From: Zygnema cylindricum
Taxonomy: Eukaryota > Streptophyta > Zygnematophyceae > Zygnematales > Zygnemataceae
Length of the DNA stretch: 64,000 nucleotides
Direction: 5' to 3'
Assembly (NCBI GenBank): GCA_037447655.1
Contig: JBBHKE010000716.1
Span: forward strand, 229,328 to 293,327
The position numbers and the translations under genes are program-made. The first letter of the stretch is position 1; every line of letters starts with the position of its first letter. The notes beneath the pieces were generated by a model. The model ran no database searches and was not told where the DNA came from. It saw only the letters and a list, made by a program, of their open reading frames with translations. This document shows positions 9,567-58,242 of the stretch, piece after piece.

Positions 9567-10628
9567 TGAAACTCTGAGACCTCCATAAGTCCTCAGAGTG
9601 GACAGTTTCCAAGAAGCCTCTAGGATAACTCTGACCCCTTTGTGTTTCAGCAAGATCAAATGACACCCTGGCAGACAAAAACTCTGACCAACTTCACCCC
9701 TGTGAAGGGAAGACTCCCCTGAGTCGATAGCAAAAAGAATCTCTGAATTTGCTCCCCTAAGCAATTAGTTATGGAGGGTCAAAGTTGACCTTTTGTACAG
9801 AAGCTCTTTGGAAGAGAGGGTCCGATCTACCAATTTTTCTAAGTCCTATCCCTCTCACAAACTCTATCTTCTGGTGTATGGCACCAATCATATTAAACTG
9901 TTGTACATAAAAGTACAGCCGCCGGTGTACTTTATGTACGGAAATTGTACGACATGGCCTAAAAGTGGACACATGTCATATCCGGATTCGGTGCCGTAAT
10001 CCCCGTAGACACCGTGATCCAACGCAATTTTGCCACGTATCATCGGATGTGGCGATGACCAAAAACCGCTGAGAATCTCTTCCGCGATCTCGGCTTTCTT
10101 CCCGGTCGTCCGATTAAATGCAGATTTTAATCAGAGCCGTCATAAATACATGCGCGGTATTTGTTTCGTAAAAGAAACAAAATGCGTGGTACTTGTTTTT
10201 TGTCCATGCCGTAATCCGTACGTTTACATAACGGGTTCTATGTAACTGTAAACATCCGCCGTTAAATGAATTTTCCGAGGTCGTAACATATGAATACAAA
10301 TCAAACCTAATAGTATGTATCGGAACTTCTAGACTTAACGGCTAAGGCTACTCGCTACCGGCGCTTAGACGGTCGGCAGGTGTCACGATCAAATCTTGTC
10401 ACCGACATATACCTTTTAGTAAATAAACCTTGCTATCTGTAAATTGAATAATCTATTTCCCGTAAACCTCTGGTTAGCCTAGGTAGCCATGGCTCTAGCT
10501 TCCTCTCCAATTTCTCAGTGACTGCTACAAGTGTGGGAGTTTGAGAGAGAAGGTAGAGGCAAACTTCCTCGGCTTCTTTTTATATTCCAATTTAGACCTA
10601 GAAAATAATGAAATAACCATTGATTTCT
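9567..10628 (-). mobile_element. Family I copia LTR (near complete)
   Basis: Begins TGAAACTCTGAGACC beside the primer site and runs to about 10,628. Family members end in TTTCTACA, but here the last bases are lost (CCATTGATTTCT, then unrelated sequence). It contains the LTR blocks seen in all family I copies: the CTCCCCTGAGC-type block, a GTAC-rich hairpin region, an antisense tRNA-like module and a conserved CCATGG block near 10,488. It is the 5' LTR of the truncated gag piece to its left. Confidence 0.82.
10328..10416 (+). ncRNA. tRNA-like module inside LTR (copy 1)
   Basis: On the strand opposite to the element: a D-arm/A-box-like segment TAGACTTAACGGCTAAGGC, a central stem CTACCGGC paired with GTCGGCAG (one mismatch plus G-T), then a T-arm with loop ATCAAAT, and TTTT at 10,413-10,416. 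The upstream TCAAACCTAATAG resembles the TCAAACCCTATA block of other copies. Pairing of the acceptor stem is not evident, so this is tRNA-like rather than a tRNA gene. Confidence 0.5.
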
Positions 10629-19170: not shown

Positions 19171-19254
19171 TGTAAATAATAATCAACGTCAAAAGAATTA
19201 ATGAGATTTTTGAATGGAAAGTCGTATAACAAATTCGAACGACTCTTAAAAGAA

Positions 19255-19440: not shown

Positions 19441-19810
19441 AAGAGGATTAACAAACACAATGGCGATATCAACAAAACCAAAGGTATGACTTAAAGTCAA
19501 AATTACATGCATTCGGTGAAAAAAGGGGAGAGAAAATTTAAATTCACACTTGTATGATAAATACAAAAAAAAAACAAAACATTGTGGCACCCAATGTGTA
19601 GAAATTTAAGGTCCTTTTAAGTATTTTCTAGGTCTAAATAGAAATACAGAAATGAGCCGAGGCAATTTATCTCTAACTTCTCTCTCCAACTCCCACACTT
19701 GTCGCAATCACTGAGAAGTTGGATAGGAAGCTAGAGCCATGGCTACCTAGGCTAGCCAGAGGTTTACGAGAAATAGATTAGTTGATTTATTGAATGGTAG
19801 TTTATTTACT

Positions 19811-19902
19811 AAAAGGATTGATGATGCAACCAGGATTTGATCCTAGTACCTGCCGGACGTCAGGCTGCCGGTAGAAGGTAACCTTATCTGTTAGGTCTAC
19901 AT
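19811..19902 (-). ncRNA. tRNA-like module in 5' LTR (copy 2)
   Basis: Minus strand, in order: TAGACCTAACAGATAAGGTT (D-arm-like); CTACCGG paired with CCGGCAG (one mismatch); T-arm loop ATCAAAT (stem CTAGG/CCTGG, one mismatch); and TTTT at 19,814-19,811. The conserved block TCAAACCCTATA lies just upstream at about 19,918-19,929. Base 54 of the T-loop is A, as in eukaryotic initiator tRNA-Met, rather than the usual T. Confidence 0.5.
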
Positions 19903-20290
19903 CTAATGATACATACTATAGGGTTTGATATATATATTTAAACATTACCACGTAGGATATTTCATTCAACGACGACTGCTTACGGAATACATAGAGTCAG
20001 TTATGTAGAAGCACAGACTACGGTACGGATAAGAAACAAGTACCGTTCATTTGTTTCTTTAAACGAAACAAATATCGCGCAAGTATTTATGACCGCTCCA
20101 ATTGAAATCGACATTCAATCGGACGGCCATGAAGAAAGCCGAGATCGCGGAAGAGATTCTCGGCGGTTTGTGTTCATCCCCACATCGGATGACACGTGGC
20201 AAAATTTCGTTGGATAGCGGCATCGCTGGGAATTACATCACCGAATCCGGATATGACATGTGTCGACTTTTAGGCCATGTCGTACAATAT

Positions 20291-20331
20291 CCGTACAAAA
20301 AGTACACCGACATCTGTACTTTTGTGTACGG
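20291..20331. repeat. GTAC-rich hairpin in LTR
   Basis: CCGTACAAAAAGTAC and GTACTTTTGTGTACGG form a 15-bp stem with one bulge around a 10-base loop. It stands 4-10 bases before the TATA-like sequence. Matching hairpins occur at the same place in the LTRs near 25,690, 31,215, 47,065 and 52,015, so it is a conserved family I feature, perhaps a promoter element. Confidence 0.7.
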
Positions 20332-20628
20332 AAGTATAATATGATTCGCTCCGTACGTCAGTAGATAAAGTCTGTGAGAGAGATAAGACTTAGAAAAAAT
20401 TGGTAGATAGGACCATCTCTACCAGAGAGCTTCTGTACAAAAGGTCAACTTTGACCCTCTATAACTTACTGCTCAGGGGAGCAAATACATAGATTCTTTT
20501 TGCTATCGACTCACGCAAGTCTTGCCTTCAAAGGGGTAAAGGTGGTGAGAGTTTTTGTCTGCTGCTGAAACACAAAGGGGTCAGGGTTATCTTAGAGGCT
20601 TCTTGGAAGCTGTCCATTCTGAGGACTT

Positions 20629-23600
20629 ATGGAGGTCTCAGAGTTTCAGGTAATAGGCCCACCCTCTAGGGTACCATTCTTTAATGGAACTGGTTTCATA
20701 TACTGGGAAAGTATGATGATGGGAGCTCTATGCGAGAAAAGGTTTTGTGGGATAGTGAGTGGACGAGTGAGGCGTCCATCAAGTCTTGAATCCCTCCAGG
20801 GTTTGGAGGAAGCAGATTCACCAAGAAAGAGGATCCACCTTCAACGGAGGAGACAAAGGAAGGGGAGGTGTTGGAAAAAGGAAAGGAGAAGGAGACGACC
20901 ACACCAATAGCAAATGGTTCGGCATTCATGTCACCTATTTCAAGGAACGAGGAAAATGATACTAATACCTAGGACTTCAACAATATGGCGGCAAAGCACT
21001 TCATCCTCCGCCATCTTACTCAAGGGCTTGCATGTCCTCATTTGCAGGTAGAAAGGGCATCCGATCTTTGGATGGCTCTCATACATATGTACCAAAGTGG
21101 TACGATTCAGCAACAACAGTTGGCTGATAAAAAAGTTAAGGAGTATGTATACAAAGGGGGGAAGATGTTGGATTTTTGCAATGAGCTTGCTACACTCTTC
21201 AATGAGCTAGAGAGTGTCGGAAAATGTTTTAGTGAAAAAGAAAAGGTTAACTGTTTACTGATGAAGTTACCCGACAAGTTCGAGAACATAGTCAGCCATG
21301 TGCAGGACTTGCCGGACTCAAGGGTGGATATGGAACTCAGTGGTAGGGATGATTCTCGTTCGGGAGAATACGATTGAGATCCGAAGGGGAGGAAAAAGTA
21401 GGCAAGCCCTGGCAACTGCGACCGATTGGAGGAACAAGGATTCCCGGAAGCCGGTCAGAAACTATGGAGGGAGGGAGCGGAAAAATCAGACCGAAGAGTT
21501 CAGACCAACGACTCCTAAAGGTTTATCTCATTTTTGTAAGAAACCGGGGTACTATATGGCAGAGTGCACTAAGCTAACCGAGCTTCGGTTAAAGGAGGGG
21601 CAGGCCGGTGGAACCCCGAGAGGAAAGAAAAAGGCACTTGTGACACAGGTACATGAGGCGGAATCCGAGGACGAGGACGATGAGCTTCTATTGGATGAGG
21701 AGTTGGAGGCGAAAAACGAGGTCCAAATTCCACGAAAGGAGAAATGTATTTACGGTGGATTAAAAGGTGAAGCAGGCTGGATTATAGATTCAGGTGCCTC
21801 CATGCACATGTGTAAGGATAAGCACCTGTTCACTAAGATAAGAAAGATTCCCACTGTAGAGATAGAGTACGGGGATTGGAGGATAGTCACTACTACTCTT
21901 GTTGGATCGGTAGATCTGAAAGTGTTAGTAGAAGGAAAGACATCTATAGTAACATTCTCCGATGTATTGTTTATTTCGGAGCTGAACAAAAACCTCGTCT
22001 CTTCATCTGTATTAGATGAAAAAGGTTTTTTAACTAGCACTAGGGAAGGAGTCTTTACTGCTTGTTTTGAGGAAGAGGTCTATTTCATTGCTGAGAAAGG
22101 TAGCTTACGGATGTTTAGGCTGATTTTAAGTAATGAAACGAAGAAACTTTATCATGCTGGTGTTCATGATATGATGATGTGGCATAAGAGGCTTGGGCAT
22201 GTGAATCTAGATAAGTTAAGAGAGATGAAAAAGATGGGAGTGGTGGAAGGGATTCAGTTCAATAAGAGTGATAATATAAGTGATTGTAGTGGATGTGCTC
22301 AAGGTAAAGCACACAGATTACCCTTTCCTAAAACAGCCACCTATAAGGGAGAAAAAATTCTAGATCTAGTACACACAGATATTTGGGGACCGGCTAAAGT
22401 GCCCTCACCGGGAAGGAAGAGATTTATGATGACTATCACTGATGATTGGTCTCGGTATTCCCGGGTGTATTTTTTGAAAAACAAGTCAGAAGCTCAAGAT
22501 TGTTTTTGACAATATAAAGCATGGAGCGAAAATCTCCATGAAACTCCAATCAAGAGAATAAGGAGTGACAATGGTGGAGAGTATACTTCTAACCAGTTTG
22601 AGGATTTTTTGAGGGAAGATGGGGTCCAACACCAAAAGACAGTTCCAGAAAACTCGGAACAGAATGGGGTAGCTGAAAGGTTAAATAGAACACTAAGTGA
22701 TACTGCTAAAAGTATGTTGTCAGATAAGAAGATAGGAAAAAGGTTTTGGGCACAAGCAATGAACTGTGCTAATTACTTTAAAAATAGAGTTCTTACTTCA
22801 GCTATAAAAGATGAAACACCTTATGAGAGATGGACAGGCCGGAAACCAGACATATCTCACTTAAAGGTTTTCGGCAGTCAAGTATTCAGTCTAGATATTG
22901 ATCGGTCTAATTGGAAGCTAGATCCTAAAAGAAAACCGGGATACTTATTAGGATATGATCAGGATGTTAAAGGATACATAGTTTATGATCTAAAAAAGGA
23001 AGATATAATCTTAGTAAAACATCTAGTAGTTATGGATGAACGAAAGTATGTAGATCCTTTCAAGTATACAAAGTCAGTAAAAATCAGATTTGAGTCAGAA
23101 AATTCCGATGACTTTGAGCTTCCTAACTATCCAGGTTTTAGAGAAGATGACATTCTTGCAGGTACAAATCACACCGAAAAGGACTCGGCTGCGAGAACTC
23201 CAGTGACAACTCTACCCGAAACGGAAGACGTGGTGGAAACTGATTCGGAATCAAGGGACAGGGGAGAAGCCGAGATTGTTCGAAAGAACCCACGAGAACC
23301 ATCTATTCCGGCCACATATTTTGAGGGGGGAAGGAGAAGTAGCAAAAGATTGCAGGAAAAACAGGTTAATAACAAGGTAACAAAACTATCTCATCAAGAT
23401 GAACATCAAACTTATGGAGAGGCGATGACTTTCCTAGAAAAAAACCGGTGGAAGACAGCCATCAATGAGGAGATGGCCTCAATTATGGTAGCAGATACTT
23501 GGGAGCTGGTGGATTGTCCACCTAACCAAAAACGAATCGGTTGTAAGTGGGTTTTCAAATTAAAACTGAACCCATATAACACAATTGAGCGTTTTAAGGC

Positions 23601-24960
23601 CCGATTAGTGGCAAAGGGATTTACACAAAAGGAGGGAATTGACTACAAGGAAACCTTTGCCCCGGTCGTCAGATTTCCCTCCGTCCGCATACTTCTCAGT
23701 TTCGCAGCAGCGGAAGACTTGGAGGTGCACCAGATGGACATCAAGACAACCTTTTTGCATGGAGAATTGGAAGAGGAGATCTTCATGCGACAACCCGAAG
23801 GATTTGTGGAGGAAGGAGAGGAGAGTAAGGTATGCCGGCTTATTAAATCTCTTTATGGTTCGAAACAAGCGCCTCGACAATGGAATAAGAAGCTTGATGA
23901 GTTTCTTATCGTTATGGGATATATCCGGATTAGCTTAGATCACTCAATCTATGTTTTTGAAGATGATGAAGGTGGTATATTTATTGCAATTTTTGTTGAT
24001 GATTTGCTTGTTTTAAGTAAATCAATGGAAAAAATTAATGAACTGAAAACCGATCTTAAGGGGAGATTTGAAATGAAGGATATGGAGGAAGCAAAATATA
24101 TTTTGGGAATTCAAGTAGAAAGAGACCAAAAAAGAAAGATATAAGATTGACTCAAAAGGAAGCAATAGGGAACATGCTTGAAAAATTTCAGATAGATAAA
24201 ACTAATAGTTGTACAACTCCAAAGGAGTTAAAGAAAGAAAGTGAGGGGAGTGAGGAAGAAGGAGTCATAGTCTTAGACGAGGAATTATCTTCTGAAGAAG
24301 AGAAGTTCATGGAGACTATTCCTTACAAGCAAGTAGTGGGAAGTCTAATCTATTTTATGAATTGTACCTGGCCGGATTTAGCTGCAGCTGTAAGAGTGCT
24401 GAGTAGAAGTCTAAATGCTCCCACTAAGAGGGATTGGGAGGCAGCTAAGAGAGTCCTTAGATATTTGATGGGAACTAGTGATCTATGGTTGCATCTGGGT
24501 GGGGAGAATAATGACATCGCTACTTGGAGTGATGCCAGTTATGGAGATGCTCCGATGAGGAGATGTACTTCTGGATATGTATCATATGTGGGTGATGGAG
24601 CTTGCTGTTGGAGTAGCAAACAGCAAAAGGTTATTGCTTAGTCCACCATGGAGGTTGAGTATATGGCCTCTCGCTTTGCTGTAAAAGAATTGATGTGGGT
24701 CAAGTCTTTGCTTGGTGAGCTTGGTCACTTTAAGAGTGGTGTGCAGATTTTTTTTAGGGATAATAAGGAGCAATCGCTATTTTTGCCAATCCTAAACATC
24801 ATTTTAAAGCCAAACAGATGGACATTAGACCCAGCTTTGTTAGAGAGAAAGTAGAAAACAAAATAATCAGTTTAGAGTACCGACCAGATAGCGAGATGGT
24901 AGCAGATATGATGACCAAACCTGTGCCTTCCCCTAAGCTAATATTCTGTAGAGAGAAGTG
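20629..24960 (+). pseudogene. gag-pol polyprotein of element 1, broken
   Basis: Copia polyprotein with ATG at 20,629 inside the LTR. Gag (M-E-V-S-E-F-Q onward) is broken by a one-base frameshift near 20,795 and a TAG at about 20,971. The zinc knuckle near 21,530 has lost its first Cys and its His (S-H-F-C-K-K-P-G-Y-Y-M-A-E-C). Protease keeps W-I-I-D-S-G-A-S (21,780). The integrase HHCC finger (H-K-R-L-G-H...C-S-G-C) and D-I-W-G-P are intact, but a TGA at 22,507 replaces Arg. R-S-D-N-G-G-E-Y has become R-S-D/E-type sequence near 22,570. RT (22,609-24,144) keeps F-V-D-D-L-L-V. A one-A deletion near 24,130 shifts the frame before RNase H, which also has a TAG at 24,641 just before S-T-M-E-V-E-Y. 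At least five lesions make it inactive. Confidence 0.9.
20649..20663 (+). promoter_or_regulatory. Primer-binding site of element 1
   Basis: GGTAATAGGCCCACC, two changes from the GGTTATGGGCCCACC seen in the other family I elements. It complements the anticodon arm of initiator tRNA-Met. The reading frame of gag passes straight through it. Confidence 0.8.
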
Positions 24961-24985
24961 TGGTCTAAAATTAAAGATTGACTAG

Positions 24986-24998
24986 AAAATAAGGGGAG
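24986..24998 (+). promoter_or_regulatory. Polypurine tract of element 1
   Basis: AAAATAAGGGGAG immediately before the 3' LTR. This is the expected primer for plus-strand DNA synthesis. The same tract occurs in reverse at 47,773-47,785. Confidence 0.85.
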
Positions 24999-26066
24999 TG
25001 TAGAAATTTATGGTCCTTTTAAGTATTTTCTAGGTCTTAATGGAAATACAGAAAGAAGCCGAGGCAGTCTATATCTAACTTCTCTCTCCAACTCCCACAC
25101 TTGTTGCAGTCACCGAGAAGTTGGAGAGGAAGCTAGAGCCATGGCTACCTAAGTTAGCCAAAGGTTTACGGAAAATAGATTTGTTGATTTATTGAATGGT
25201 AGTTTATTTACTTAAAGGATTGATGATGCAACCAGGATTTGATCCTGGTACCTGCCGGACGCTAGGCTGCCGGTAGAAGGTAACCCTAAATATTAGGTCT
25301 ACAGCTAATGATACATACTATAGGGTTTGATATATATTTAAACATTACCACGTAGGATATTTCATTCAACGACGACTGCTTACGGAATACATAGAGTCAC
25401 TTACGTAGAAGTACGGATTACGGTACAGATAAGAAACAAGTAATGCGCATTTGTTTCTTAAAACCAAATAAACATCGCGTAAGTATTTATGACGGCTCTG
25501 ATTGAAATCGACATTCAATCGGACTGCCAAGAAGAAAGCCGAGATCGCGAAAGAGATTCTCGGCGGTTTGTGGTCATCGCCACATCGGATGACACGTGGC
25601 AAAATTGCGTTGGATCGCGGCATCTCCGAGAATTACGGGACCGAATTCGGATATGACATGTGTCGACATTTTGGCCATGTCGTACAATATCCGTACAGAA
25701 AGTACACCGGCAGCTGTACTTTTGTGTACGAAAGTGTAATATGATTCGCTCTGTACATCAATCGATAGAGTTTGTGAGAGAGATAGGACTTAGAAAAAAT
25801 TGGTAGATAGGACCCTCTCTCCCAGAGAGCTTCTGTACAAAAGGTCAGCTTTGACCCTCCATAACTTACTGCTTAGGGGAGCAAATTCAGAGATTCTTTT
25901 TGCTATCGACTCACGGAAGTCTTCCCTTCAAAGGGTTGAAGGTGGTGAGAGTTTTTGTTTGCCAGGGTGGCATTTGTTCTTGCTGAAACACAAAGGGGTC
26001 AGGGTTAACCTAGAGGCTTCTAGGAAGCTGTCCATTTTGAGGACTTATCGAGGTCTCAGAGTTTCA
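24999..26066 (+). mobile_element. 3' LTR of element 1
   Basis: Aligned along its whole length with the 5' LTR, from TGTAGAAATTTA to GAGTTTCA. Visible differences include a 16-bp longer GTTTGCCAGGGTGGCATTTG region near 25,960 and scattered substitutions, so the insertion is not very recent. Confidence 0.9.
25214..25301 (-). ncRNA. tRNA-like module in 3' LTR (copy 3)
   Basis: Minus strand: TAGACCTAATATTTAGGGTT, CTACCGG with CCGGCAG, and a T-arm with perfect 5-bp stem CCAGG/CCTGG around loop ATCAAAT. The terminator position reads CCTTTAAG, only three T, so this copy lacks a proper Pol III stop. Confidence 0.45.
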
Positions 26067-30897: not shown

Positions 30898-31934
30898 AAA
30901 TCCTCAGAGTGGATAGCTTCCAAGAAGCCTCTAGGATAACCCTGACTCCTTTGTATTTCAACAAGATTAACTGCCACCCTGGCAAATAAAAATTCCGACC
31001 ACCTTCACCTCTGTGAAGGCAAGACTCATTTGAGTCGAAAGCAAAAAGAATCTCTGAATTTACTCCCCTGAGCAGTAAGTTATGGAGGGTCAAAGTTGAC
31101 CTTTTGTACAGAAGCTCTCTGGGAGAGAGGCTCCTATCTACCAATTTTTTCTAAGTCCTATCTCTCTCACAGACTTTATCTACTGACGTATGGAGCCAAT
31201 CATATTACACTTCCGTACACAAAAGTACAACTGCCGGTGTACTTTCTGTACGAATACTGTACGACATGGCCTAAATGTCGACACGAAGTATTTCCGGATT
31301 CGCTCCTTTAATCCCCGGTGATGCCGCGATTGAATGTCTTTCCGCCATGTGTCATCCGATGTGGCGATGACCAAAAACCGCCGAAATCCTCTTCCGCGAT
31401 CTCGGCATTCATTCCGGCCGTCCGATTAAATGCATTTTTAATCGTAGCGGTAATAAATACCTGCGCGGTATTCGTGTCCCTATCGAAACAAATGTGCGGT
31501 ATTTGTTCCTTGTCCGTACCTTAATCCGTACTTTTACATAACTGGATCTATGTATCCCGTAAACAGTTAAATGAATTATCCTACGTAATTATATTTAAAT
31601 AAATATCAAACCCTATACCATGTATCATTAGTCTTAGACTTAATGGTTAGGACTACCGGCTACTGGCTATTTATTATTCCGTAGGTACCAAGATCAAATC
31701 CTCGTTCTGACATCACCCTTTTAGGAAATAACTTATCGGTAAATAAACTAATCTATTTCCCGTAAATCTCTGGATAGCCTAGGCAGCCATGGCTCTAGCT
31801 TCCACTCCAACTTCCTAGTGACTGCGACAAGTGTGGGAGTTGGAGAGAGAAGTTAGAGATAGAGTGCCTCGTCTTCTTTCTGTATTTTAATTTAGACCTA
31901 GAAAATACTTAAAAAGGAACCATCAATTTCTACA
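30878..31934 (-). mobile_element. 5' LTR of element 2
   Basis: 1,057 bp, from TGAAACTGTG (30,878) to TTTCTACA (31,934) on the plus strand. It carries the same ordered blocks as element 1: end block, GTAC hairpin near 31,215, tRNA-like module at 31,632 and CCATGG at 31,787. Confidence 0.9.
31632..31722 (+). ncRNA. tRNA-like module in LTR (copy 4)
   Basis: Plus strand: TAGACTTAATGGTTAGGAC, the best D-arm match of the set with the TGG of the D-loop. CTACTGG opposes CCGTAG. The T-arm contains AAGATCAAATCCT, and TTTT at 31,719-31,722 is 18-19 bases after the B box. TCAAACCCTATA lies just upstream at about 31,606-31,617. Confidence 0.5.
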
Positions 31935-39109: not shown

Positions 39110-40171
39110 GGTATTTTACATCTTGTCTCTCTCTCTCTCTTTTATGTCTTAAACAGTCTTAGACTCTCACTAAGATAGATAGAGAGAGAAGACCATGGCT
39201 GCCTGTCAAAGAGGCTCAAACAGAAAAAAAAAATGACTCAATTTACCAAAATGGTTAGACCGGCCGAGATTTGAATCTTACAGAGATAGATAGAGAGAGA
39301 GAAGGCCATGGTTGCCTGTCAAAAAGGCTCAGACAATTAAAAAATTTGACTCAATATACCAAAATGGTTAAACAGGCGAGATTTGAACCTGGGTACTACG
39401 CTAATTAATAATGAAATGTTGCCTTATCCGCTAAATCGTTGTAAAAACGTTAATGGTAAAATGCATGGTAAAGTAATGAATGCGAACAAAAACGACTAAT
39501 TCATCTAATGACGCAAACAAACAAATAGCCGTATGTGAACCGACGGCACGCCTTCATATTACGACGTCATGCATAGATGCGAAGCGTAATGCACGAACAC
39601 GAATCTCGACCTTGTAAATATTTATAATCAAACGGACACAGCCGTCAACCCGGAACGATCCTTTTGGCGGCTTTCGGAGTTACCATCACAGAGGGCTACG
39701 TGGCGGCTTATAAATCGACACAGGAGAAGACAGGAGGAGGAACCATGGTTTCCAATCCGACAGATGTCACCGAGAAGGTTTCTACCGTACAGTGGCCGTA
39801 CAATACGTACATCGGACGCTATAATTTTCTGTAGTATACAATTGTGTGATTGGTCTAGGGTTTAAATAGTAGCCAAGTGTAAGTAGGCAGAATAAGACTA
39901 GAGACATTTCTGAGCCGCAACTCTCTGTGCGAGTTTTTGTATATATAGGTCATCTTTAACCATTGATAACTAACTGCTCAAGGGAGCAAATTCAGTGATT
40001 CTGTATGCAGCGGACTTAGGGGAGTCATGCAATCATGCCTTCACTGGGCTGAAGTCGGTCAGAGTCATTGCCTGCCAAGGTGGCAATTATTGTTGGGGAA
40101 ACCAAAGTGGGTTGATGCAATCTTAGAGGCTACTTGTGAACTATGCATTTTGTGGGGCAACGGAGCCCACA
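39110..40171 (+). mobile_element. Diverged solo LTR (family IV)
   Basis: Shares the ordered landmarks of the half-tRNA copia LTRs in plus orientation: GAGAGAGAAGACCATGGCTGCC near 39,180-39,210, antisense tRNA-like module(s), and a GTAC-rich part near 39,790. After these come AACTGCTCAAGGGAGCAAATTC near 39,971 and GCCTGCCAAGGTGGCAATT near 40,071. No primer site or gag follows, so it is a solo LTR. About 110 bp holding CCATGG plus the T-arm is duplicated in tandem (39,176-39,284 and 39,285 on). The ends are approximate. Confidence 0.65.
39361..39442 (-). ncRNA. tRNA-like module in solo LTR (copy 5)
   Basis: Minus strand: GATTTAGCGGATAAGGCAAC, very close to the D-arm of plant tRNA-Arg-type genes. 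Later comes CCAGGTTCAAATCTCGCC, whose GGTTCAAATCT matches the B box GGTTCRANTCC at 10 of 11 positions, and then ATTTTGG with TTTT at 39,364-39,361. A second, partial copy (T-arm plus TTTT) lies at about 39,248-39,283. Confidence 0.5.
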
Positions 40172-41489: not shown

Positions 41490-41726
41490 CAAAAATAATT
41501 AATATTCACTTCTTAATTTGGACTCTAGAGAGAAGAGAGAGAGAGAGAGAGAGAGTCACCATGGCTGCGCAAATAGTAAGAAAGAAACAGGCAGACAGGC
41601 AGACAGATTGAAAGATGACCAAAATGCTACCTTGGATCGGATTTCATCCTTGGTCAGTGACCTACAAATGAAGACGTACGCCTTATCTATTAATGCGTTA
41701 ACAAAACGATACACGAATGTGGTACG
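41490..41726 (+). mobile_element. LTR fragment cut by element 3
   Basis: A (GA)n run followed by CACCATGGCTGCGC and then an antisense tRNA-like module repeats the order of the start of the family IV LTR at 39,120-39,440. It is broken off at 41,727 where the LTR of element 3 begins, so element 3 probably inserted into it. Confidence 0.5.
41619..41705 (-). ncRNA. tRNA-like module, LTR fragment (copy 6)
   Basis: Minus strand: TTAACGCATTAATAGATAAGGCG (given to 41,705) is D-arm-like. The T-arm has the weaker loop GGATGAAATCC, and the T run is TTTT at 41,622-41,619. It is more decayed than the others. Confidence 0.35.
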
Positions 41727-42720
41727 TGTTTAAATCACTAGATTTAGGGAGTATTATCTAGGTCTGAATAGATAAAAACAAAACGGACAAGGCAACCTGC
41801 CTCCACCTTGTCTATCTAGCCCCCATACTTGTTGTACTCACTAAAGGAGAGAGAGTGTGGTGGAGCCATGGCTGCCTCAGCTTCATAGGCAGGACTAAGG
41901 AGTAACATAAGTCATGCTCAATAAAAGGTGAGTCCGGCAGGACTCGAACTTCGACCGGCAAAGCGAGGCGTAGCTGTCACCTTTAACCGGTCTGTCGTAG
42001 AAGATCGTTAGACTACATAGGGTTTGATTTCTATTTAACACTGTTTAGGAACATTAATCTGATTAGCAAAATTACGTTTAGAGAACATGGAAACAAGTTA
42101 AATTATAGTGCAAACGTGAACCCGCACAAAACAAATGTACAAGACATTTGTTTTCCACGGCTAGTAGTAAAAACCGGTTTGGATCATCGGTTTCGACAGC
42201 TTGCATCATCGCCGAGATCCCTAAATGGTCGCTTTAGCGGTTTTCGGGCGTAACATGACATGGCGCCACATGGCAAGATAGCATTGGGAAGTGAAAATCC
42301 CGAGGAGCATGAGGACAACTCTGAAACTGACATACGTCCACTTAATGGCTTTGTCGTACACAGGTCGTACAAAAAAGACATCGACGATGGTACCTTTTTG
42401 TATTGTGATTGGTTCGTACTTCAGTATATAGGGGTTGTGAGAGGGGTTTAGGACTTAGGGGATTTAGGAGGTAGTCGCCTCTCTCCCAGAGAGCTTGTAT
42501 AAATATTGGTATATTTGGCACCTTATAACTAATCGCCTGGTTGGGCGTCTTTTGTGATTCTTTTTGTGGCAGACTCAAGGGAGTCTAGACTTTACAGTTG
42601 TGCAGTCACATTTTCTATTTGCCTGCTTGGGTAGCACTAGTCTCAATTGAAAGAGGGTTAGTCAAAAACTGCCTAGAGGAATCTTGAATTCAGTAGTCTA
42701 ATGGGGGACACATTATTGCA
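41727..42720 (+). mobile_element. 5' LTR of element 3 (family III)
   Basis: TG start (TGTTTAAATCACTAG) and CA end (ATTATTGCA) with the primer site directly after. About 994 bp. It keeps the group's landmarks (CCATGGCTGCC at 41,867, tRNA-like module, CTCTCCCAGAGAGC near 42,480), but most of its sequence differs from families I and II. Confidence 0.75.
41923..42014 (-). ncRNA. tRNA-like module in element 3 LTR (copy 7)
   Basis: Minus strand: TAGTCTAACGATCTTCTACG (D-arm-like), a long central stem GACCGG/CCGGTC, then AGTTCGAGTCC, 10 of 11 matches to the B box, and CCTTTTATT with TTTT at 41,926-41,923. TCAAACCCTATG lies just upstream at about 42,015-42,026, the same block as in family I. Confidence 0.5.
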
Positions 42721-45888: not shown

Positions 45889-46727
45889 TGCAACTCTGAG
45901 ACCTCCATTGGTACCCAGAGTAGGCGGCCTGGTAGAAGCCTCTAGGATAACCTCAGTTGTTCAATATTTGTCTGAATATTGCTGACACCCTTACATAATA
46001 CACACTGACCAAACATCACCCCTTGGAAGAGCTAACTCCCCTGAGTGTGCCACAAAAAGAATCCTTGAATTTTCTCGCCTGAGCAGTAAATTATCAATGG
46101 TCAAAGATGACCTTTTATATAGAAGCACTCTGGGAGAGAGGCTACTACTCTAACATTTTCTAAGTCTTGAACCCCTCTCTTATCTCTCTACTACTGAAGT
46201 ACGGAGCTAATTAATTAAGTGTACAATACAGAAAGGTACTTGGCCCTGAGTACTTTTTGTACGGCCAGTGTACGACATGGCCAAGAAGGTGACACCTGCT
46301 ATTTCCGGGTTCACCACGATATGTCCCGGAGATGCCGCTATCCAATGTAATTTTGCCACGTGTCATCCGGCGTGGCTGGGGCCGTAAATCGCCAAAACGT
46401 CAATTTCGCGATGCCGACTTCTTTTTTCGTCGTCGGATTGATATCGGTCTTAGTTTATAGCCGTTGAAATACATTTAGATGTGATTCAATCTAACTATAT
46501 CTATGTGATTGTGGTCCGTTCGTCAATTAAATGAACTTTCTTTTTTGTACATCTTTAAGTAGCTATCGTACCCTATATACTTTGACAAAGGTGGTAGGCT
46601 ACATGGTAACGACGTTGGTTTATTCAGACAGACGGTAGGTACCAGTATCAAATCATGGGTTTGTTAACCTTTTTGGTTAGTTTAACAAAGGACTTCCTTC
46701 TGATTATAAGAGCATAGACAACCATGG
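45889..46727 (-). mobile_element. 3' LTR of element 4, larger part
   Basis: Starts TGCAACTCTGAGACC and follows the 5' LTR at 57,243 on, including ACTCTGGGAGAGAGG, the GTAC-rich part and the tRNA-like module. It stops at CCATG|G, where element 5 begins. The remaining 153 bp are at 52,726-52,878. Confidence 0.85.
46578..46674 (+). ncRNA. tRNA-like module in element 4 3' LTR (copy 8)
   Basis: Plus strand: GACAAAGGTGGTAGGCTAC (D-arm-like with GGTGG), then GGTACCAGTATCAAATC with the A-T-C-A-A-A-T loop, and TTTTT at 46,670-46,674. The T-stem is weaker than in family I. Confidence 0.45.
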
Positions 46728-47772
46728 TGAAACTCTGAGACCTCCATAGGTCCTCAGAATGGACAGCTTGCAAGAAGCCTCTAGGATATCCCGGACCCGT
46801 TTTTGTTTCAGCAAGAATAACAACCACCTTTGCAGACAAAAACTCTAACCACCGTCACCCATGTGAAGATAAGACTCCCCTGAGTCGATAGCAAAAAGAA
46901 TCTCTGAATTTGCTCCCCTGAGCAGTAAGTTATGGAGGGTCAAAGTTGACCTTTTGTACAAAAGCTCTTTGGGAGAGAGGGTCCTATCTGCCAATTTTTT
47001 TAAGTCCTATCTCTCTCACAAACTCTATCTACTGATGTACGGAATCAATCATATTACACTTCCGTACACAAAAATATAGCTGCCGGTGTACTTTTTGTAC
47101 GAATACTGTACGACATGGCCTAAATGTCGACACGTGGTATATCCATATTTGCTCCATTAATCCTTGGAGATGCCGCGATCCAATGTCATTCAGCCACGTG
47201 TCATCCCTTGTGGCAATGACCAAAAACTGTCGAAATCCTCTTCCACGATCTCGGCATTCATTCCGACCGTCCGATTAAATACAGATTTAATCGTAGCTGT
47301 AACAAATACTTGCGCGGTATTTGTTTCGCTATTGAAACAAATGCGCGGTACTAGTTTCTTGTCCATACCCTAATCCGTACATTTACATAACCGAACCTAG
47401 GTATCCTGTAAATAGTTTCGTTAAATAATTTTTTTAGCGTAGTAATGTTTAATTATTTATCAAACACAATATACTCTAACACTAGTCATAGACTAAATAG
47501 ATAGAGCAACCGGCTACCGGCGGCTGTGACGGCCGGTAGGTACCAGGATCAAATCATATACCCGACAGCTTACTTTTTGGTAAATCAACTAATCTACTAC
47601 CCGTATATCTTAGGATAGCATAGGCAGCCATGGCTCTAGCTTGATATCCGACTTTCAGTGACTGCAACAAGTGTGGGAGTTGAAGAGAGAAGTTAGAGGC
47701 AGACTGCCTTGGCTTCTTATCTGCATTTTATTTTAGACCTAGAAAATACTAAATGAACCATCAATTTCTACA
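46728..47772 (-). mobile_element. 3' LTR of element 5
   Basis: 1,045 bp from TGAAACTCTGAG to TTTCTACA, followed by the polypurine tract in reverse (CTCCCCTTATTTT, 47,773-47,785). Confidence 0.9.
47482..47578 (+). ncRNA. tRNA-like module in element 5 3' LTR (copy 9)
   Basis: Plus strand: TAGACTAAATAGATAGAGC resembles the D-arm with the GATAGAGC typical of many tRNAs. CTACCGGC pairs with GCCGGTAG perfectly over 8 bp. CCAGGATCAAATC is the B-box part, and TTTTT is at 47,574-47,578. Confidence 0.5.
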
Positions 47773-47785
47773 CTCCCCTTATTTT

Positions 47786-50700
47786 CTAGTCAATCTTCAA
47801 TTTCAGACCACACTTCTCCTTGCAGAAAATAAGCTTAGGAGAAGGCACAGGTTTGATCATCATATCTGCTACCATCTCGCTATCTGGTCGGTAATCTAAA
47901 CTGATTAATTTATTTTTTACTTCTCTCTAACAAAGCTGAGTCTAATGTCCATGTGTTTGGCTTTAAAATGATGTTTAGGATTGGCAGAAATAGCGATTGC
48001 TGCTTGATTATCACAAAAAAAATTCTGCACACCACTCTTAAGGTGACCAAGCTCACCAAACAAAGACTTGACCCACATCAATTCTTTTACAGCAGAGCAA
48101 GAGGCCATATACTCAGCCTCAATGGTGGACTAAGCAATAACCTTTTGCTGTTTGCTACTCCAACAGCAAGCTCCATCACCCACATATGATACATATCCAG
48201 AAGTACATCTCCTCATCGGAGCATCACCATAACTGGCATCACTCCAAGTAGCGATGTCATTATTCTCCCCACCCATATACAACCATAGATCCCTAGTTCC
48301 CATCAAATATCTAAGGACTCTCTTAGCTGCCTCCTAATCCCTCTTAGTGGGAGCATTTAGACTTCTACTCAGCACTCCTACAGCTGCAGCTAAATCCGGC
48401 CGGGTACAATTCATAAAATAGATTAGACTTCCCAATACTTGCTTGTAAGGAATAGTCTACATGAACTTTTGTTCTTCAGGAGATAATTCCTCGTCTAAGA
48501 CTATGACTCTTTCTTCCTCACTTCCCTCACTTCCCTTTTTTAACTCCATTGGAGTTGTACAACTATTAGCTTTATCCATCTGAAATTTTTCAAGCATGAT
48601 CCCTATTGCTTCCTTTTGAGTCAATCTTATAATCTTTCATTTTTGGTCTCTTTCTACTTAAATTCCCAATATATATTTTGCTTCCACCATATCTTTCATT
48701 TCAAATCTCCCCTTAAGATCGGTTTTCAGTTTATTAATTTTTTCCATTGATTTACTTAAAACAAGCAAATCATCAACATAAATTGCAATAAATATAACAC
48801 CTTCATCATCTTCAAAAACATAGATTGAGTGATCTGAGGTGATCCGGATATATCCAAGACCGGTAAGAAACTCATCAAGCTTCTTATTCCATTGTCAAGG
48901 CGCTTGTTTAAAACCATAAAGAGATTTAATCAGCCGACATACCTTACTCTCCTCTCCTTCCTCCACGAATCCTTCGGGTTGTCGAATGAAGATCTCCTCT
49001 TCCAATTCTTTATGCAAAAAGGTTGTCTTGATGTCCATCTGGTGCACCTCCATGTCTTTTGCTGCTGCTAGACTGAGAAGTATGCGGAAAGAGGGAAATC
49101 TGACGACCGGCGCAAAGGTTTCCTCGTAGTCGATACCCTCCTTTTGTGTAAATCCTTTTGCCACTAATCGGGCCTTGTAGCGCTCAATTGTGTTATCTGG
49201 GTTCAGTTTTAGTTTGAAAACCCACTTACAAACTATTGGTTTTCGGTTAGGTGGACAATCCACCAGCTCCCAAGTATCGGCTGCCATAATTGAGGCCATC
49301 TCTTCATTGATTGCTGTCTTCCACCGGTTTCTTTTTGGGCAAGTCATCGCCTCTCCATAAGTCTGAGGTTCATCTTGATGAGACAATTTTGTTACCTTGT
49401 TATTAACCTTTTTTTCCTGCAATCTTTTGCTACTTCTCCTTCCCCCCTCAAAATATGTGGCCGGAATAGATGGTTCTCGTGGGTTCTTTCGAATAATCTC
49501 GGCTTCTCCCCTGTCCCTTGATTCTGAATCAGTTTCCACCACGTCTTCCGTTTTGCGTAGAGTTGTCACTGGAGTTCTCGCAGCCGAGTCCTTTTCGGTG
49601 TGATTTGTACCTGCAAGAATGTCATCTTCTCTAAAACCTGGATAGTTAGGAAGCTCAAAGTCATCGGAATTTTCTGACTCAAATCTGATTTTTACTGACT
49701 TTGTATACTTGAAAGGATCCACATACTTTCGTTCATCCATAACTACTAGATGCTTTACTAAGATTATATCTTCCCTTTTTAGATCATAAACTATGTATCC
49801 TTTAACATCCTCATCATATCCTAATAAGTATCCCAGTTTTCTTTTAGGATCTAGCTTCCAATTAGACCGATCAATATCTAAACTGAATACTTGACTGCCG
49901 AAACCTTTAAGTGAGATATGTTTGGTTTTTGGCAGGTCCATCTCTCATAAGGTGTTTGATCTTTTATAGCTGAAGTAAGAACTCTATTATTGAGGTAATT
50001 TGCACAGTTTATTGTTTCTGCCCAAAACCTTTTTCCTATCTTCTTATCCGACAACATACTTCTAGCACAATCACTTAGTGTCTTATTTAATCTTTCAGCT
50101 ACCCCATTATGTTCCGGGTTTTCTGGAATTGTCTTTTTGTGTTAGACTCCATCTTCCCTCAAAAAATCCTCAAACTGGTTAGAAGTTTACTCTCCACCAT
50201 TGTCACTCCTTATTCTCTTGATTGGAGTTTCATGGAGTTTTTCGCTCCATGCTTTATATTGTCTAAAACAATCCTGAGCTTCTGACTTGTTTTTCAAAAA
50301 ATACACCCTGGAATACTGAGACCAATCATCAGTGATAGTCATCATAAACCTCTTCCCCCTCGGTGAGGGCACTTTAGCCGGTCCCCAAATATCTGTGTGT
50401 ACTAAATCTAAAATTCTTTCTCCCTTATAAGTGGCTCTTTTGGGAAAGGGTAATCTGTGTGCTTTACCTTGAGCACATCCACTACAATCACTTATACTCT
50501 CACTCTCTTTGAATTGAATCCCTTCCACCACTCCCATCTTTTTCATCTCTCTTAACTTATCTAGATTCACATGCCCAAGCCTCTTATGCCACATCAGAAT
50601 ATCATGAACACCAGCATAATAAAGTTTCTTTGTTTCATTACTTAAAATCAGCCTAAACATCCCTTGGCTACCTTTCTCAGCAATGAAATAAATATCTTCC

Positions 50701-51702
50701 TCAAAACAAGCAGTAAAGACTCCTTCCCTAGTGGTAGTAGAAAAACCCTTATCATCTAATACAGATGTAGAGATGAGGTTTTTGTTCAGCTCCCGAATAA
50801 ATAATACATCGGAGAATGTTACTTTAGATGTTTTTCCTTCTACTAACACTTTCAGATCTACCGATCCTATAAGAGTAGCAGGGACTATCCTCCCATCCCC
50901 GTACTCTATCTCTACGGTGGGAATCTTTCTTATCTTAGTGAACAGGTGCTTATCCTTACACATGTGCATGGAGGCACTTGAATCTACAATCCAGCCTGCT
51001 TCACCTTTCAATCCACCGTAAGCACATTTCTTCCTTCGTGGAATTTCAACCTCGTTTTTCGCATCAAACTCCTCATCGAATAGGAGCTCATCGTCCTCGT
51101 CCTCGGATTCTACCTCATGCACCTGTGTCACAAGGGCCTTTTTTTTTCCTCTCGGGTATCTACCTGTCTGCCCCTCCTTTAACCGAAGCTCGGTTAGCTT
51201 AATGCACTCTCCCATACTGTGCCCGATTTCCACTTCGGTATATCTCTATGAGAGCCATCCAAAGATCGGATGCCCTTTCTACCTGCAAATGAGGACATGC
51301 AAGCCCTTGAATAAGATGGCGGAGGATGAAGATCTTTGCCGCCATATTGTTGAAGTCCCAAGTATCAGTATCATTTTCCTCGTTCCTCGGAATCGGTGAC
51401 ATGAATGCTAAACCAGTTGCTATTGGTGTGGTCGTCTCCTTCTCCGTTCCTTTGTCCACCACCTCTCCTTCCTATGTCTCCTTCGTTGAAGATCGATTTG
51501 CTTTCCTTATGAATCTGTTTCCTCCAAACCTTGGAGGGATTCCAAGACTTGATGGACGCCCCACTCGTCCACTCACCATCCCCTAAAACCTTTTCTCGCG
51601 TAGAGCTCATGTCATCATACTTTCCTAGTATATGAAGCCAGTTCCATTGAATAATGGTTCTTTAGAGGGTGGGCCCATAACCTGAAACTCTGAGACCTCC
51701 AT
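47786..51702 (-). pseudogene. gag-pol of element 5, broken
   Basis: Gag begins M-E-V-S-E-F-Q-V-M-G-P-P from an ATG inside the LTR. A deletion of about 430 bp near 51,228 joins the capsid part to sequence just after the zinc knuckle. Protease reads D-S-S-A-S, so the Gly of the catalytic D-S-G is lost. Integrase has an intact HHCC finger and the D-I-W-G-P and S-D-N-G-G-E motifs, then a TAA for Tyr at 50,187. The hinge and RT frame (49,941-48,895) is long and open until a TGA replaces Arg in Q-A-P-R-Q-W. RT YVDD and RNase H relics continue to about 47,850. It cannot make its own particles, but its LTRs, primer site and polypurine tract are intact. Confidence 0.9.
51668..51682 (-). promoter_or_regulatory. 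Primer-binding site of element 5
   Basis: Minus strand GGTTATGGGCCCACC, a perfect match to the group consensus, adjoining the 5' LTR. Confidence 0.85.
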
Positions 51703-52725
51703 AAGTCTTCAAAGTGGACAACTTCCAAAAAGCCTCTAGGATAACCCTTAACCCTTTGTGTTTCACCAAGAACAACTGCCACCTTGGCAGACAAAAACTT
51801 TGAGCACCTTCACTTTTAAGAAGACAAGACTCCCCTAAGTGGATAGCAAAAAGAATCTCTGAATTTGCTCCCCTGAGCAGTAAGTTATGGAGGGTCAAAG
51901 TTGACCTTTTGTATAGAACTCTCTGGGAGAGTGGGTCCTATCTGCCAATTTCTTTAAGTCCTATCTCTCTCACAAACTCTATCTACTGATGTACGGAACC
52001 AATGATATTACACTTCCGTACACAAAAGTACTGATGCCGGTGTACTTTCTGTACGAATACTGTACGACATGGCTTAAATGTCGACACGTGGTATATCCGG
52101 ATTTGCTCCCTTAATCCCGGAGATGCCGCGATCCAATGTCATTCAGCCACGTGTCATCCGATGTGAGGATGACCAAAAACCGCCAAAATCCTCTTCCGCG
52201 ATCTCGACATTAATTATGGCCGTCCGATTAAATGCAGGTTTAATTGTAGCTGTAATAAATACCTGCGCGGTATTCGTTTCGCTATTGAAACAAATGCGCG
52301 GTACTAGTTTCTCATCCGTACCCTAATCTGTACATTTACATAACCGAACCTATGTATCCTGTAAATAGTCTCGTTAAATGAATTTGTCAGCGTAGTAATG
52401 TTTAATTATTTATCAAACACAATATACTCTAACACTAGGCATAGACTAAATGGATTGAGCAACCGGCTACCGGCGGGTGTAACGGCCGGTAGGTACCAGG
52501 ATCAAATCTTGTACCCGACATCTTAATTTTTAGTAAATCAACTAATCTACTACCCGTATATCTCAAGATAGCATAGGCAGCCATGGCTCTAGCTTCATAT
52601 CCGACTTTCACTGACTGCAACAAGTGTGGGAGTTGAAGAGAGAAGTTAGAGGCAGACTGCCTTGGCTTCTTTTCTACATTTTATTTTAGACCTATAAAAT
52701 ACTAAACGAACCATCAATTTCTACA
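51683..52725 (-). mobile_element. 5' LTR of element 5
   Basis: 1,043 bp from TGAAACTCTGAG to TTTCTACA. It is very similar to the 3' LTR (46,728-47,772), with scattered differences. Confidence 0.9.
52435..52531 (+). ncRNA. tRNA-like module in element 5 5' LTR (copy 10)
   Basis: The clearest copy. D-arm-like TAGACTAAATGGATTGAGC. Perfect 8-bp stem CTACCGGC (52,467-52,474) and GCCGGTAG (52,485-52,492) with a 10-base loop. GGTACCAGGATCAAATC, whose GGATCAAATCT differs from the B box mainly by A for T at loop position 54. TTTTT at 52,527-52,531. Confidence 0.55.
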
Positions 52726-52907
52726 CATGGCTCTAGCTTCTTCTCCAGTCTCTAGTGACTACGACAAGTATGGGGCTAGAGAGAGAAGTTAGAAGCAGGC
52801 TGCCTTTGCTTTTCGTTCCTCATTTTAGATTAATTAAAAAACCTAGAAAATACATAAGAAAACCTTTTAATTTCAACACTGCCTTTATTTTGTAGTCATC
52901 TTTTAGT

Positions 52908-57242: not shown

Positions 57243-58242
57243 GGTAACTCTGAGACCTCATTTTGGTACTCAGAGTAGGCAGCTTGCTAGAAGCCTTTAG
57301 GATAACCTCAGTTCTTTAAGCTTTGTCTAAATATTGTTGACACCCTAACAGAATACGGACTAACCAAAGTGCACCCCTTGGAAAAGCTGACTCCCCTGAG
57401 TCTGCCACAAAAAGAATCCTTGAATTTGCTCCCCAGAGCAGTTATTTATCAGTGGTCAAATGTGACCTTTTAAACAAAAACGCTCTGGGAGAGAGGTTAC
57501 TACCTAATATTTTCTAAGTCCTGAACCCCTCTCTTATCCCTTTGCTACTAAAGTACGGAGCCAATCAATTAAGTGTGCACTACAAAAAGGCACTTGGCTC
57601 GGAGTACTTTCTGTACGGCAAGTGTACGACATGGCCAAGAAGGTGACGCCTGCCATTTCCGGGTTCGCCCTGGTATGGCGCGAAAGATACTGCTATCCAA
57701 TGTAATGTTGCCACGTGTCACTCGGCGTGGCTGGGGCTGCAAACCGCCAAATCCTCCATTCCGCGATACTGGCTTTTTTCTGAGCCGTCCGATTGATATC
57801 GACCTTAATTTATAGTCGTTAAAATACAAGTAGTACTTTTAGATGTGATTCTATATAACTATATTTATGTGATTGTGGTCCGTTCGTCAGTTAAATGATT
57901 TTTCCTATTTGTACATCTTTAACTAGCTATCGTAACCTATATACCTCGACACAGGTGCTAGGCTACATGGTAACGACGCTGGTCTATTCAGACGGACGGT
58001 AGGTACCACGATCAAATCTTGGGTCCGTTAACTTTTTTGGTAAGTTTAACAAAGGACTGCCTTCTGACTTTAGGAGAAGCATATGCAACCATGGCTCTAG
58101 CTTCTTCTTTAGCCTCCAGTGAATACGACAAGTATGGGGCTAGAGAGAGAAGTTAGAAGCAGGTTGCCTCTTTCTTTCCTTCCTCATTATAGATTACTTA
58201 AGAAACTTAGAAAATACGCAAAACAACCTTTTAATTTCAACA
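57243..58242 (-). mobile_element. 5' LTR of element 4 (family II)
   Basis: 1,000 bp. The inner end reads GGTAACTCTGAG, with the expected TG changed. The outer end is TTTCAACA at 58,242. It carries the tRNA-like module, the CCATGG block near 58,090 and the GTAC-rich part near 57,610. Confidence 0.85.
57944..58038 (+). ncRNA. tRNA-like module in element 4 5' LTR (copy 11)
   Basis: Plus strand: TCGACACAGGTGCTAGGCTAC, GTCTATTCAGAC mini-stem, CCACGATCAAATCTTGG (T-arm with ATCAAAT loop) and TTTTTT at 58,033-58,038. Confidence 0.45.

What the first reader, a model, noticed from the sequence alone, without database searches (positions are those of the whole stretch)
52435..52531. tRNA-like Pol III-type module conserved antisense in copia LTRs
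Seen: about eleven LTR copies (modules at 10,328, 19,811, 25,214, 31,632, 39,361, 41,619, 41,923, 46,578, 47,482, 52,435, 57,944) carry the same ordered parts on the strand opposite to the element. These are a D-arm-like segment, in most copies a central stem (perfect 8 bp here), and a T-arm with a near-consensus B box. A run of T4-T6 then follows 15-19 bases later (only T3 at 25,214). The LTRs of the families are otherwise strongly diverged, yet position, orientation and order are kept, and both LTRs of elements 1, 4 and 5 have it. Known: Cassandra elements carry 5S RNA promoters in their LTRs. I know of no equivalent tRNA-like case. Inference: the module may drive an antisense Pol III transcript, affecting chromatin, silencing or replication.
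Basis: partly seen in the sequence, partly recalled or inferred. Interest (0 to 1): 0.93.

Follow-up and report, generated by a model that had tools for sequence, protein, structure and literature searches.

The report
Antisense tRNA-like gene in Copia LTRs
In a plant-like genome, a group of Copia retrotransposons carries, backwards inside its long terminal repeats, a worn tRNA-derived stretch that still has the start and stop signals of a small RNA gene, which may let copies make a short antisense RNA, although no transcription has been measured.

Summary
The LTRs belong to coding-type Copia elements. A covariance model built only from 13 host tRNAs, run over the window without filters, returns five of the eleven listed modules as hits 2-6 of 17, all antisense. 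In 20 E1-type LTR copies chosen by another part of the LTR it hits the module in 18, all antisense. In 20 F-type copies chosen likewise it hits 13, nine of them by the T arm alone, but the B box matches at least 8 of 9 consensus positions in 15. A T4+ run follows 13-18 bases after the B box in 12 of 12 family rows.

The module lies in U3, points away from the element and ends inside the LTR, so it is badly placed to make the element's own RNA. The block is not conserved above the LTR; the boxes are in some tests, not in others. Covariation is not shown.

tRNA-like LTR modules are published as Helenus (Kojima 2024) in short non-coding elements. Different here: antisense, own T-run, coding Copia hosts. 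Best reading: an anciently captured Pol III unit, probably still able to recruit TFIIIC. Transcription is untested; a neutral relic remains possible.

The parts
52442..52453 (+). A-box / D-arm-like segment of the focal module (TAGACTAAATGG)
   Evidence: sequence; R1 alignment; in the top 4.8% of LTR windows for conservation among 28 copies
52499..52509 (+). B-box / T-arm segment of the focal module (GGATCAAATCT, 7 of 9 consensus positions)
   Evidence: consensus recalled
52527..52531 (+). T5 run, candidate Pol III terminator, 17 bases after the B box
52438..52517 (+). Focal tRNA-like module in the 5' LTR of the element at 46728-52725 (element on - strand)
   Evidence: R1 14.9 bits, E 0.02
47485..47567 (+). 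Module in the 3' LTR of the same element
   Evidence: R1 9.9 bits, E 0.85
19822..19903 (-). Module in the 5' LTR of the element at 19597-26066 (+)
   Evidence: R1 21.5 bits, E 1.3e-4
25224..25305 (-). Module in the 3' LTR of the element at 19597-26066 (+)
   Evidence: R1 16.7 bits, E 0.0049
31631..31712 (+). Module in the LTR 30878-31936 (-)
   Evidence: R1 10.6 bits, E 0.49
10328..10414 (+). Module in the LTR 9567-10628 (-); degraded B box (6 of 9)
   Evidence: by alignment; not an R1 hit
57944..58036 (+). Module in the 5' LTR, about 57243-58242 (-), of a more diverged family
   Evidence: by alignment; only a shortened 6.7-bit R1 hit
46578..46670 (+). Module in the 3' LTR of that family (LTR split by the nested element into 45889-46727 and 52726-52879)
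   Evidence: not an R1 hit
41918..42011 (-). Module of a second lineage (F) in the LTR 41727-42720 (+); AGTTCGAGTCC B box, T4
   Evidence: relatives; not an R1 hit itself
39361..39453 (-). Module of a third LTR type (LTR about 39.1-40.18 kb, +), TTCAAAT T-loop
   Evidence: not an R1 hit
41619..41715 (-). Weak module, C56 of the B box lost; LTR membership not shown
19597..26066 (+). Copia element with both LTRs (19597-20648, 24998-26066), TSD CAATG, PBS GGTAATAGGCCCACC at 20649; coding frames broken
46728..52725 (-). Copia element with both LTRs (51683-52725, 46728-47773), TSD CCATG, PBS GGTTATGGGCCCACC; coding frames broken
57243..58242 (-). 5' LTR of the element into whose other LTR the 46728-52725 element is nested

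Best explanation
An ancestor of this Copia clade acquired a tRNA-derived Pol III type-2 transcription unit in antisense orientation in U3, about 190-315 bp from the 5' end of a roughly 1-kb LTR, and the families sampled here (E-type, F-type, and the L013 and 39,361 types) inherited it. The cloverleaf has decayed (enlarged anticodon region, weak acceptor), while the order A box, B box, T-run is kept in most sampled copies. SHOWN: tRNA kinship, position, orientation, T-run placement, presence in copies chosen by another part of the LTR. INFERRED: TFIIIC binds the boxes, and Pol III makes a roughly 100-120-nt RNA that starts and ends inside U3, antisense to the 3' end of the element's genomic RNA. 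The likeliest use to the element is at the DNA level: a TFIIIC-bound, nucleosome-poor boundary that keeps the U3 promoter accessible. An antisense RNA that limits copy number or marks the genomic RNA is second.
For: The host-tRNA model finds it in the window, in 18 of 20 E1-type copies chosen by their R/U5 side (E 8e-8 to 0.31, all antisense; L118 only by its A-box half because another sequence interrupts it), in one new LTR as top hit of 47 kb of neighbouring contig and in 13 of 20 F-type copies (4 full-length, 9 T-arm only). B box >=8/9 in 15 of 20 F-type copies, never above 7 on the other strand. T4+ 13-18 bases after the B box in 12 of 12 family rows; within 15 bases of the module end in 13 of 18 E1-type hits, background 5.4%; within 25 bases of the T-loop in 15 of 18 F-type copies, background 19.6%. 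TATA[AT] upstream in 5 of 12 families against 8% background and 63% of 35 host tRNA genes. In the 10 family rows found by LTR similarity, the A+B pair is in the top 4% of equally spaced windows. In E1-type copies D, T and acceptor pairs form in 93, 85 and 71% of cells; 81% overall against 19-50% when slid.
Against: No RNA or ChIP data. No conservation above background for the block; for the B box within E4- and E1-type copies (37% of windows at least as conserved; 87%); for both boxes within F-type (67% and 60%) and in the joint E1+F alignment (29% and 36%). In two other row sets the A+B pair ranks in the top 4.7% and only 10.5%. Covariation is not above shuffles (123/500; 77/500). Six of the 11 listed modules give no full R1 hit. 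A position-chosen LTR in L085 (only its 3' part recognised) has no antisense R1 hit. CAA close upstream is not enriched (1 of 12; background 19%; host 14%), and only 14 of 35 host tRNA genes have T4 within 30 bases, so the host norm is looser than the module. Related rows are not independent events.
Confidence: 0.55

Rival explanations
1. Neutral relic: a tRNA gene or tRNA-derived SINE landed antisense in an ancestral LTR and has been copied passively since; it has no use and may not be transcribed.
For: Block no more conserved than the LTR; boxes not conserved above background in F-type or in the joint set; no covariation; several copies degraded.
Against: A box in the top 3-8% of windows in two E-type samples, B box in the top 3-11% in the four row sets; T-run kept in 12 of 12 family rows; both lineages keep near-consensus B boxes although U3 around them is only 37-47% identical between F and E5 or E4.
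Confidence: 0.35
2. The two conserved segments are binding sites for ordinary Pol II factors or silencing factors, and the tRNA likeness is coincidental.
For: Other stretches of U3 are as conserved or more, including an upstream ATATCAAACCCTATA stretch.
Against: A model made only from host tRNAs picks the module in order, spacing and strand (E down to 2.9e-8, where loci were chosen by the module; 8e-8, where they were not), with a T-run just behind it.
Confidence: 0.06
3. Primer capture: the antisense tRNA-like stretch came from the element's own tRNA primer copied during reverse transcription, since the primer lies on the minus strand.
For: Antisense polarity fits; the PBS matches the anticodon arm of initiator tRNA-Met (tRNA recalled); E-type T-loops have A54 as eukaryotic initiators do (recalled).
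Against: D and central arms do not resemble initiator tRNA (recalled); F and 39,361 modules have T54; best host match for 6 of 8 modules among 13 host tRNAs is an organelle-like tRNA-Asn (no initiator tRNA was in that set); the module is in U3, not next to the PBS.
Confidence: 0.07

Closest known systems
Helenus (TRIMp3), Kojima 2024, PMC10886601 (outline, abstract, parts 1-4 of 6 of the text and find passages seen)
   Same: tRNA-like sequence with A and B boxes inside both LTRs, mostly not a functional tRNA; fungal Helenus is thought to depend on Copia and mostly uses the anticodon loop of initiator tRNA-Met as primer, the primer type inferred here; one plant case (Selaginella).
   Different: Helenus are TRIMs of 311-1263 bp without genes, and the paper supposes that the sequence makes the template RNA. 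Here the elements are about 6-6.5 kb with Copia gag/integrase/RT, the module is antisense in U3 and ends in its own T-run. The paper argues that autonomous partners must use Pol II promoters and are unlikely to share long LTR sequence with TRIMp3.
Cassandra / Ajax (5S rRNA-derived LTR elements; as described in PMC10886601)
   Same: Small-RNA-gene-derived Pol III promoter in the LTR.
   Different: 5S (type 1) promoter, non-coding TRIMs; Cassandra transcription is described as running from the 5' LTR to the 3' LTR, i.e. through the element.
Foamy virus Pol III miRNA genes, in the LTR of a simian foamy virus (search listing and abstract starts seen)
   Same: Short Pol III units inside the LTR of an autonomous retroelement.
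   Different: Animal retroviruses; miRNA precursors; no tRNA-derived antisense unit in what was seen.
tRNA-derived SINEs
   Same: tRNA-like head with kept boxes and decayed cloverleaf (general knowledge).
   Different: I did not find a SINE body or tail around the module by eye; copies outside LTRs were not searched for.
Half-tRNA-Met-primed plant Copia lineages Osser, Bryco, Gymco-II (PMC6317226, find passages seen)
   Same: PBS type (inferred here); 5-bp TSDs.
   Different: No tRNA-like LTR module is mentioned in the passages seen; RT phylogeny not done here.

Membership tests
Helenus (TRIMp3) | tRNA-derived sequence inside the LTRs | tested here: met
Helenus (TRIMp3) | TRIM: short (paper: under 1000 bp screened, up to 1263 bp), no coding capacity | tested here: not met
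   elements of about 6-6.5 kb with Retrotran_gag_2, rve, RVT_2, although the window's copies have broken frames
Helenus (TRIMp3) | Promoter placed so that it could make the element's own template RNA | tested here: not met
   module antisense in U3 and followed by a T-run; the paper infers this role, it does not test it, and orientation is not stated as a criterion in the parts seen
Functional tRNA gene | Complete cloverleaf recognised by tRNA finders | tested here: not met
   ARAGORN none, Rfam none in the window; central arm enlarged (alignments)
Pol III type-2 transcription unit | A box, B box at tRNA spacing, terminator T4+ | tested here: met
   sequence level; A boxes match only 4-7 of 8 specified consensus positions (the consensus is recalled, and the script's label '10 specified' is a slip, it has 8)
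Pol III type-2 transcription unit | TFIIIC/Pol III occupancy and transcript | not testable with these tools
   no RNA or ChIP data on hand
Ty1/copia | RVT_2, copia gag and integrase, 5-bp TSD | tested here: met
   TSDs CAATG and CCATG
Osser/Bryco/Gymco-II Copia lineages | PBS complementary to half tRNA-Met | tested here: inconclusive
   GGTTATGGGCCCACC behind four 5' LTRs and two near variants behind the 19597 and 41727 LTRs fit a recalled plant initiator tRNA; host gene search not answered
Osser/Bryco/Gymco-II Copia lineages | RT/RH/INT phylogeny | not tested
tRNA-derived SINE | Own tail, TSD and copies outside LTRs | not tested
   no genome-wide search for copies outside LTRs was made

The most novel reading that the evidence does not exclude
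A whole clade of coding Copia elements has domesticated a tRNA-derived Pol III gene, placed backwards in its LTR, as a regulatory device: each LTR, solo LTRs included, is a small Pol III locus whose TFIIIC complex and short antisense RNA shape silencing, copy number or chromatin borders, which would make the genome carry a very large scattered set of Pol III sites owned by one retrotransposon clade.
Probability: 0.3. Interest if true: 0.85.

Novelty: new variant of a known kind. Interest (0 to 1): 0.58.

Why it matters
Small-RNA-gene promoters in LTRs were explained as a way for tiny non-coding elements to make their own template RNA. Here the same kind of module sits in large coding elements, backwards and followed by its own T-run, so that explanation does not fit. 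If the unit is active, it gives a direct test of whether TFIIIC/Pol III sites protect or restrain retrotransposons, and it could explain tRNA-like pseudogenes in such genomes.

Tried and rejected
Chance pattern: rejected. Conserved 90-bp block: rejected. Conserved 8-bp central stem: not general, no compensating change. Cloverleaf covariation: not shown; the number of pairs with a change on both sides was reached by 21 of 500 shuffles, the covariation score by 77 of 500, and a +1 slide scores nearly as high (0.104 against 0.106). An alternative hairpin enclosing the T arm (GACGGAC/GTCCGTC in L005 and L011) gave a covariation score reached by 4 of 500 shuffles, but I chose it from these rows, so it is a lead only. 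Rfam tRNA at E<=10: none. Parent tRNA: 6 of 8 modules score best against an organelle-like tRNA-Asn among 13 host tRNAs, two of those six no better than many shuffles (37 and 67 of 200); undecided. Viral contigs and phages: no relatives of one reverse-transcriptase ORF. A genome-wide search with a model of the module was not made, so the share of LTRs with the module is known only for the samples fetched; 'candidates of the first look' (1825, 2401, 4028, 5096) are not copy counts.

Samples and rows dropped: the F-type and E1-type samples are ranks 2-21 of the 41 and 40 matches listed. L099 and L112 were dropped before the F conservation count (interrupted; identical to L111), L132 before the E1 count (no LTR at that place), L118 and L125 before the joint count. 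L013 and W39 (39,361) were chosen through the module; results with and without them are. By-catch LTRs covering the module place: L005, L011, L013, L023 have it; L055 shows an A-box-like part but the LTR match ends before the B box; L085 shows none. In one search the script misplaced the T-loop of L104, which one search places correctly.

Full report
WHAT THE WINDOW IS. The window is part of a 352.8-Mb, 2689-contig genome (G000:C532:229328-293327). The window is packed with Copia elements: Retrotran_gag_2, gag_pre-integrs, Pol_BBD, rve, SH3_retrovirus and RVT_2 domains, in broken frames. Self-comparison, LTR alignment and end checks give LTRs of about 1.0-1.07 kb at 9567-10628(-), 19597-20648(+) and 24998-26066(+), 30878-31936(-), 41727-42720(+), 46728-47773(-) and 51683-52725(-), about 57243-58242(-), and one LTR split into 45889-46727 and 52726-52879(-) by the nested element. 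TSDs are CAATG and CCATG for the two complete elements; the PBS is GGTTATGGGCCCACC behind four LTRs, with GGTAATAGGCCCACC and AGTTATGGGCCCACC behind two more, which fits the anticodon arm of a plant initiator tRNA-Met (recalled). A survey of plant elements reports half-tRNA-Met PBSs in Osser, Bryco and part of Gymco-II (PMC6317226, find passages).

THE MODULE. About 190-315 bp from the 5' end of each LTR, on the strand opposite to the element, lie a D-arm/A-box-like segment, a variable centre, a T-arm/B-box segment and a T-run. To test tRNA kinship without using the module itself, I built a covariance model from 13 host tRNAs. Over the whole window, both strands, no filters, it gave 17 hits at E<=10; hits 2-6 are five of the eleven listed modules. 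One more listed module gave a shortened 6.7-bit hit and five gave none. The top hit (10776-10848, -) is a different tRNA-like sequence outside these LTRs.

SAMPLES. Loci chosen by similarity to the focal module: 27 of 28 are hits (L004 is not), best 33.2 bits, E 2.9e-8; these were chosen by the module, so this shows only that it is tRNA-like. Contig neighbours (47 kb) chosen by position: the top hit is a new LTR's module, antisense; the second is a copy already known as L007; an LTR of which only the 3' part was recognised (L085) has none. Copies chosen by R/U5 sequence that excludes the module, ranks 2-21 of the matches listed: E1-type 18 of 20 hits, all antisense, E 8.1e-8 to 0.31, misses L121 and L132, and two further weak sense-strand hits; F-type 13 of 20 hits at the module, antisense, E 0.013-6.3, four full-length and nine of the T arm only, one pair of copies identical (L111, L112), with four further hits elsewhere. 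In the F-type sample the B box matches at least 8 of 9 consensus positions in 15 of 20, and the opposite strand never exceeds 7. In the E1-type sample 6 of 20 reach 8 of 9 and the opposite strand never exceeds 7.

T-RUN AND UPSTREAM SIGNALS. T4+ begins 13-18 bases after the B box in 12 of 12 family representatives; within 15 bases of the module end in 13 of 18 E1-type hits, background 5.4%; 13-14 bases after the best B-box match in 18 of 20 F-type copies. As a control, only 14 of 35 host tRNA genes have T4 within 30 bases of their 3' end. Upstream, TATA[AT] occurs in 5 of 12 families, 8% of random LTR positions and 63% of 35 host tRNA genes; CAA close upstream is not enriched (1 of 12, background 19%, host 14%). 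Rows are related by descent, so these are not independent trials.

CONSERVATION, FOR AND AGAINST. Twelve LTR rows of several families: B box identity 0.81 (top 2.7% of windows), A box 0.70 (top 12.7%), both at fixed spacing top 0.5%, the stretch between them 0.51, LTR mean 0.58. Without the two rows chosen through the module: A top 10.9%, B top 8.0%, both top 4.0%. Two smaller row sets: both top 4.7% and 10.5%. Among 28 E4-type copies: A top 4.8%, B only 37%. E1-type (19 rows): A top 8.1%, B 87%. F-type (18 rows): A 67%, B 60%. E1+F together (35 rows): A 29%, B 36%. The 97-bp block does not exceed the LTR (0.079 against 0.071 mean minority frequency). Box-level constraint is therefore possible over long times but weak or absent in single samples, most of which are probably old dead copies (the two complete elements have LTR pairs 91% identical).

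STRUCTURE. In E1-type copies acceptor, D and T pairs form in 71, 93 and 85% of cells, 81% overall against 19-50% for slid partners, but changes do not covary above shuffles (77 of 500 reach the score). Across families D, central and T stems give 123 of 500. The boxes outlast the fold, as in SINE promoters (general knowledge).

GEOMETRY AND MECHANISM. TACAAAAGG or similar lies near LTR position 810-845 and might mark the Pol II start; this was not tested. The module is upstream of that, backwards and followed by a T-run, so it is badly placed to make the genomic RNA. The inferred product is a 100-120-nt RNA inside U3, antisense to the 3' end of the genomic RNA. I favour a DNA-level role (TFIIIC-bound open region) over an RNA-level role because the boxes outlast the fold; this is inference.

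PRIOR ART. Kojima 2024 (PMC10886601; outline, abstract, parts 1-4 of 6 of the text and find passages) describes Helenus, TRIMs with tRNA-like LTR sequences in fungi, animals and one plant, notes that 'not a few' Repbase LTRs resemble part of a tRNA, and supposes that the sequences make template RNA; its single use of the word orientation concerns a PBS figure. Foamy viruses have Pol III miRNA genes, in a simian one encoded in the LTR (abstract starts). The listings (capped at 8-20 papers each; 15 of 25 shown, 10 of 13, 12 of 27) showed no title or abstract start on an antisense tRNA-like module in coding Copia LTRs; that is the extent of the claim, and subscription journals are mostly not held.

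VERDICT. A real, widespread, antisense tRNA-derived Pol III-type unit in the LTRs of a coding Copia clade: a new variant of a known kind, with function open.

Noticed in passing
window 10776-10848 (-): Best host-tRNA-model hit of the window (29.4 bits, E 3.6e-7), followed at once by T4; outside these LTRs, perhaps a SINE head. Genome search for it did not complete.
   Followed up: partly
window 39159-39390: Tandem duplication inside an LTR that doubles the B-box/T-run end of the module.
   Followed up: no
L029 761-3109, L017 761-3115 (G000:C1075): Three LTRs in a row 1304 and 1870 bp apart; the first two are 91% identical overall, yet their module stretches differ at one place in the 160 bases printed.
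   Followed up: partly
about 20-45 bases upstream of the module A box in E- and F-type copies: TTTAAATA...ATCAAACCCTATA stretch is among the most conserved parts of the E1-type stretch; contains AAACCCTA, like the plant telo-box (recalled).
   Followed up: no
L098-L117 (F-type LTRs): Long inverted repeat near the LTR 5' end (GGCAGCCATGGCTCCACC ... GGTGGAGGCAGGCTGCC) visible in many copies.
   Followed up: no
window 58479-58594 (-): Strong hairpin with sub-threshold plant miRNA family matches, probably a small inverted-repeat element.
   Followed up: no
window 17305-19182 (-): Broken transposase-like ORFs; one has a weak match to HTH_Tnp_Tc5.
   Followed up: no
window 62313-63332 (+): ORFs, one with a sub-threshold ubiquitin match, resembling a plant UPL5-type gene (recalled), a likely host gene.
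   Followed up: partly
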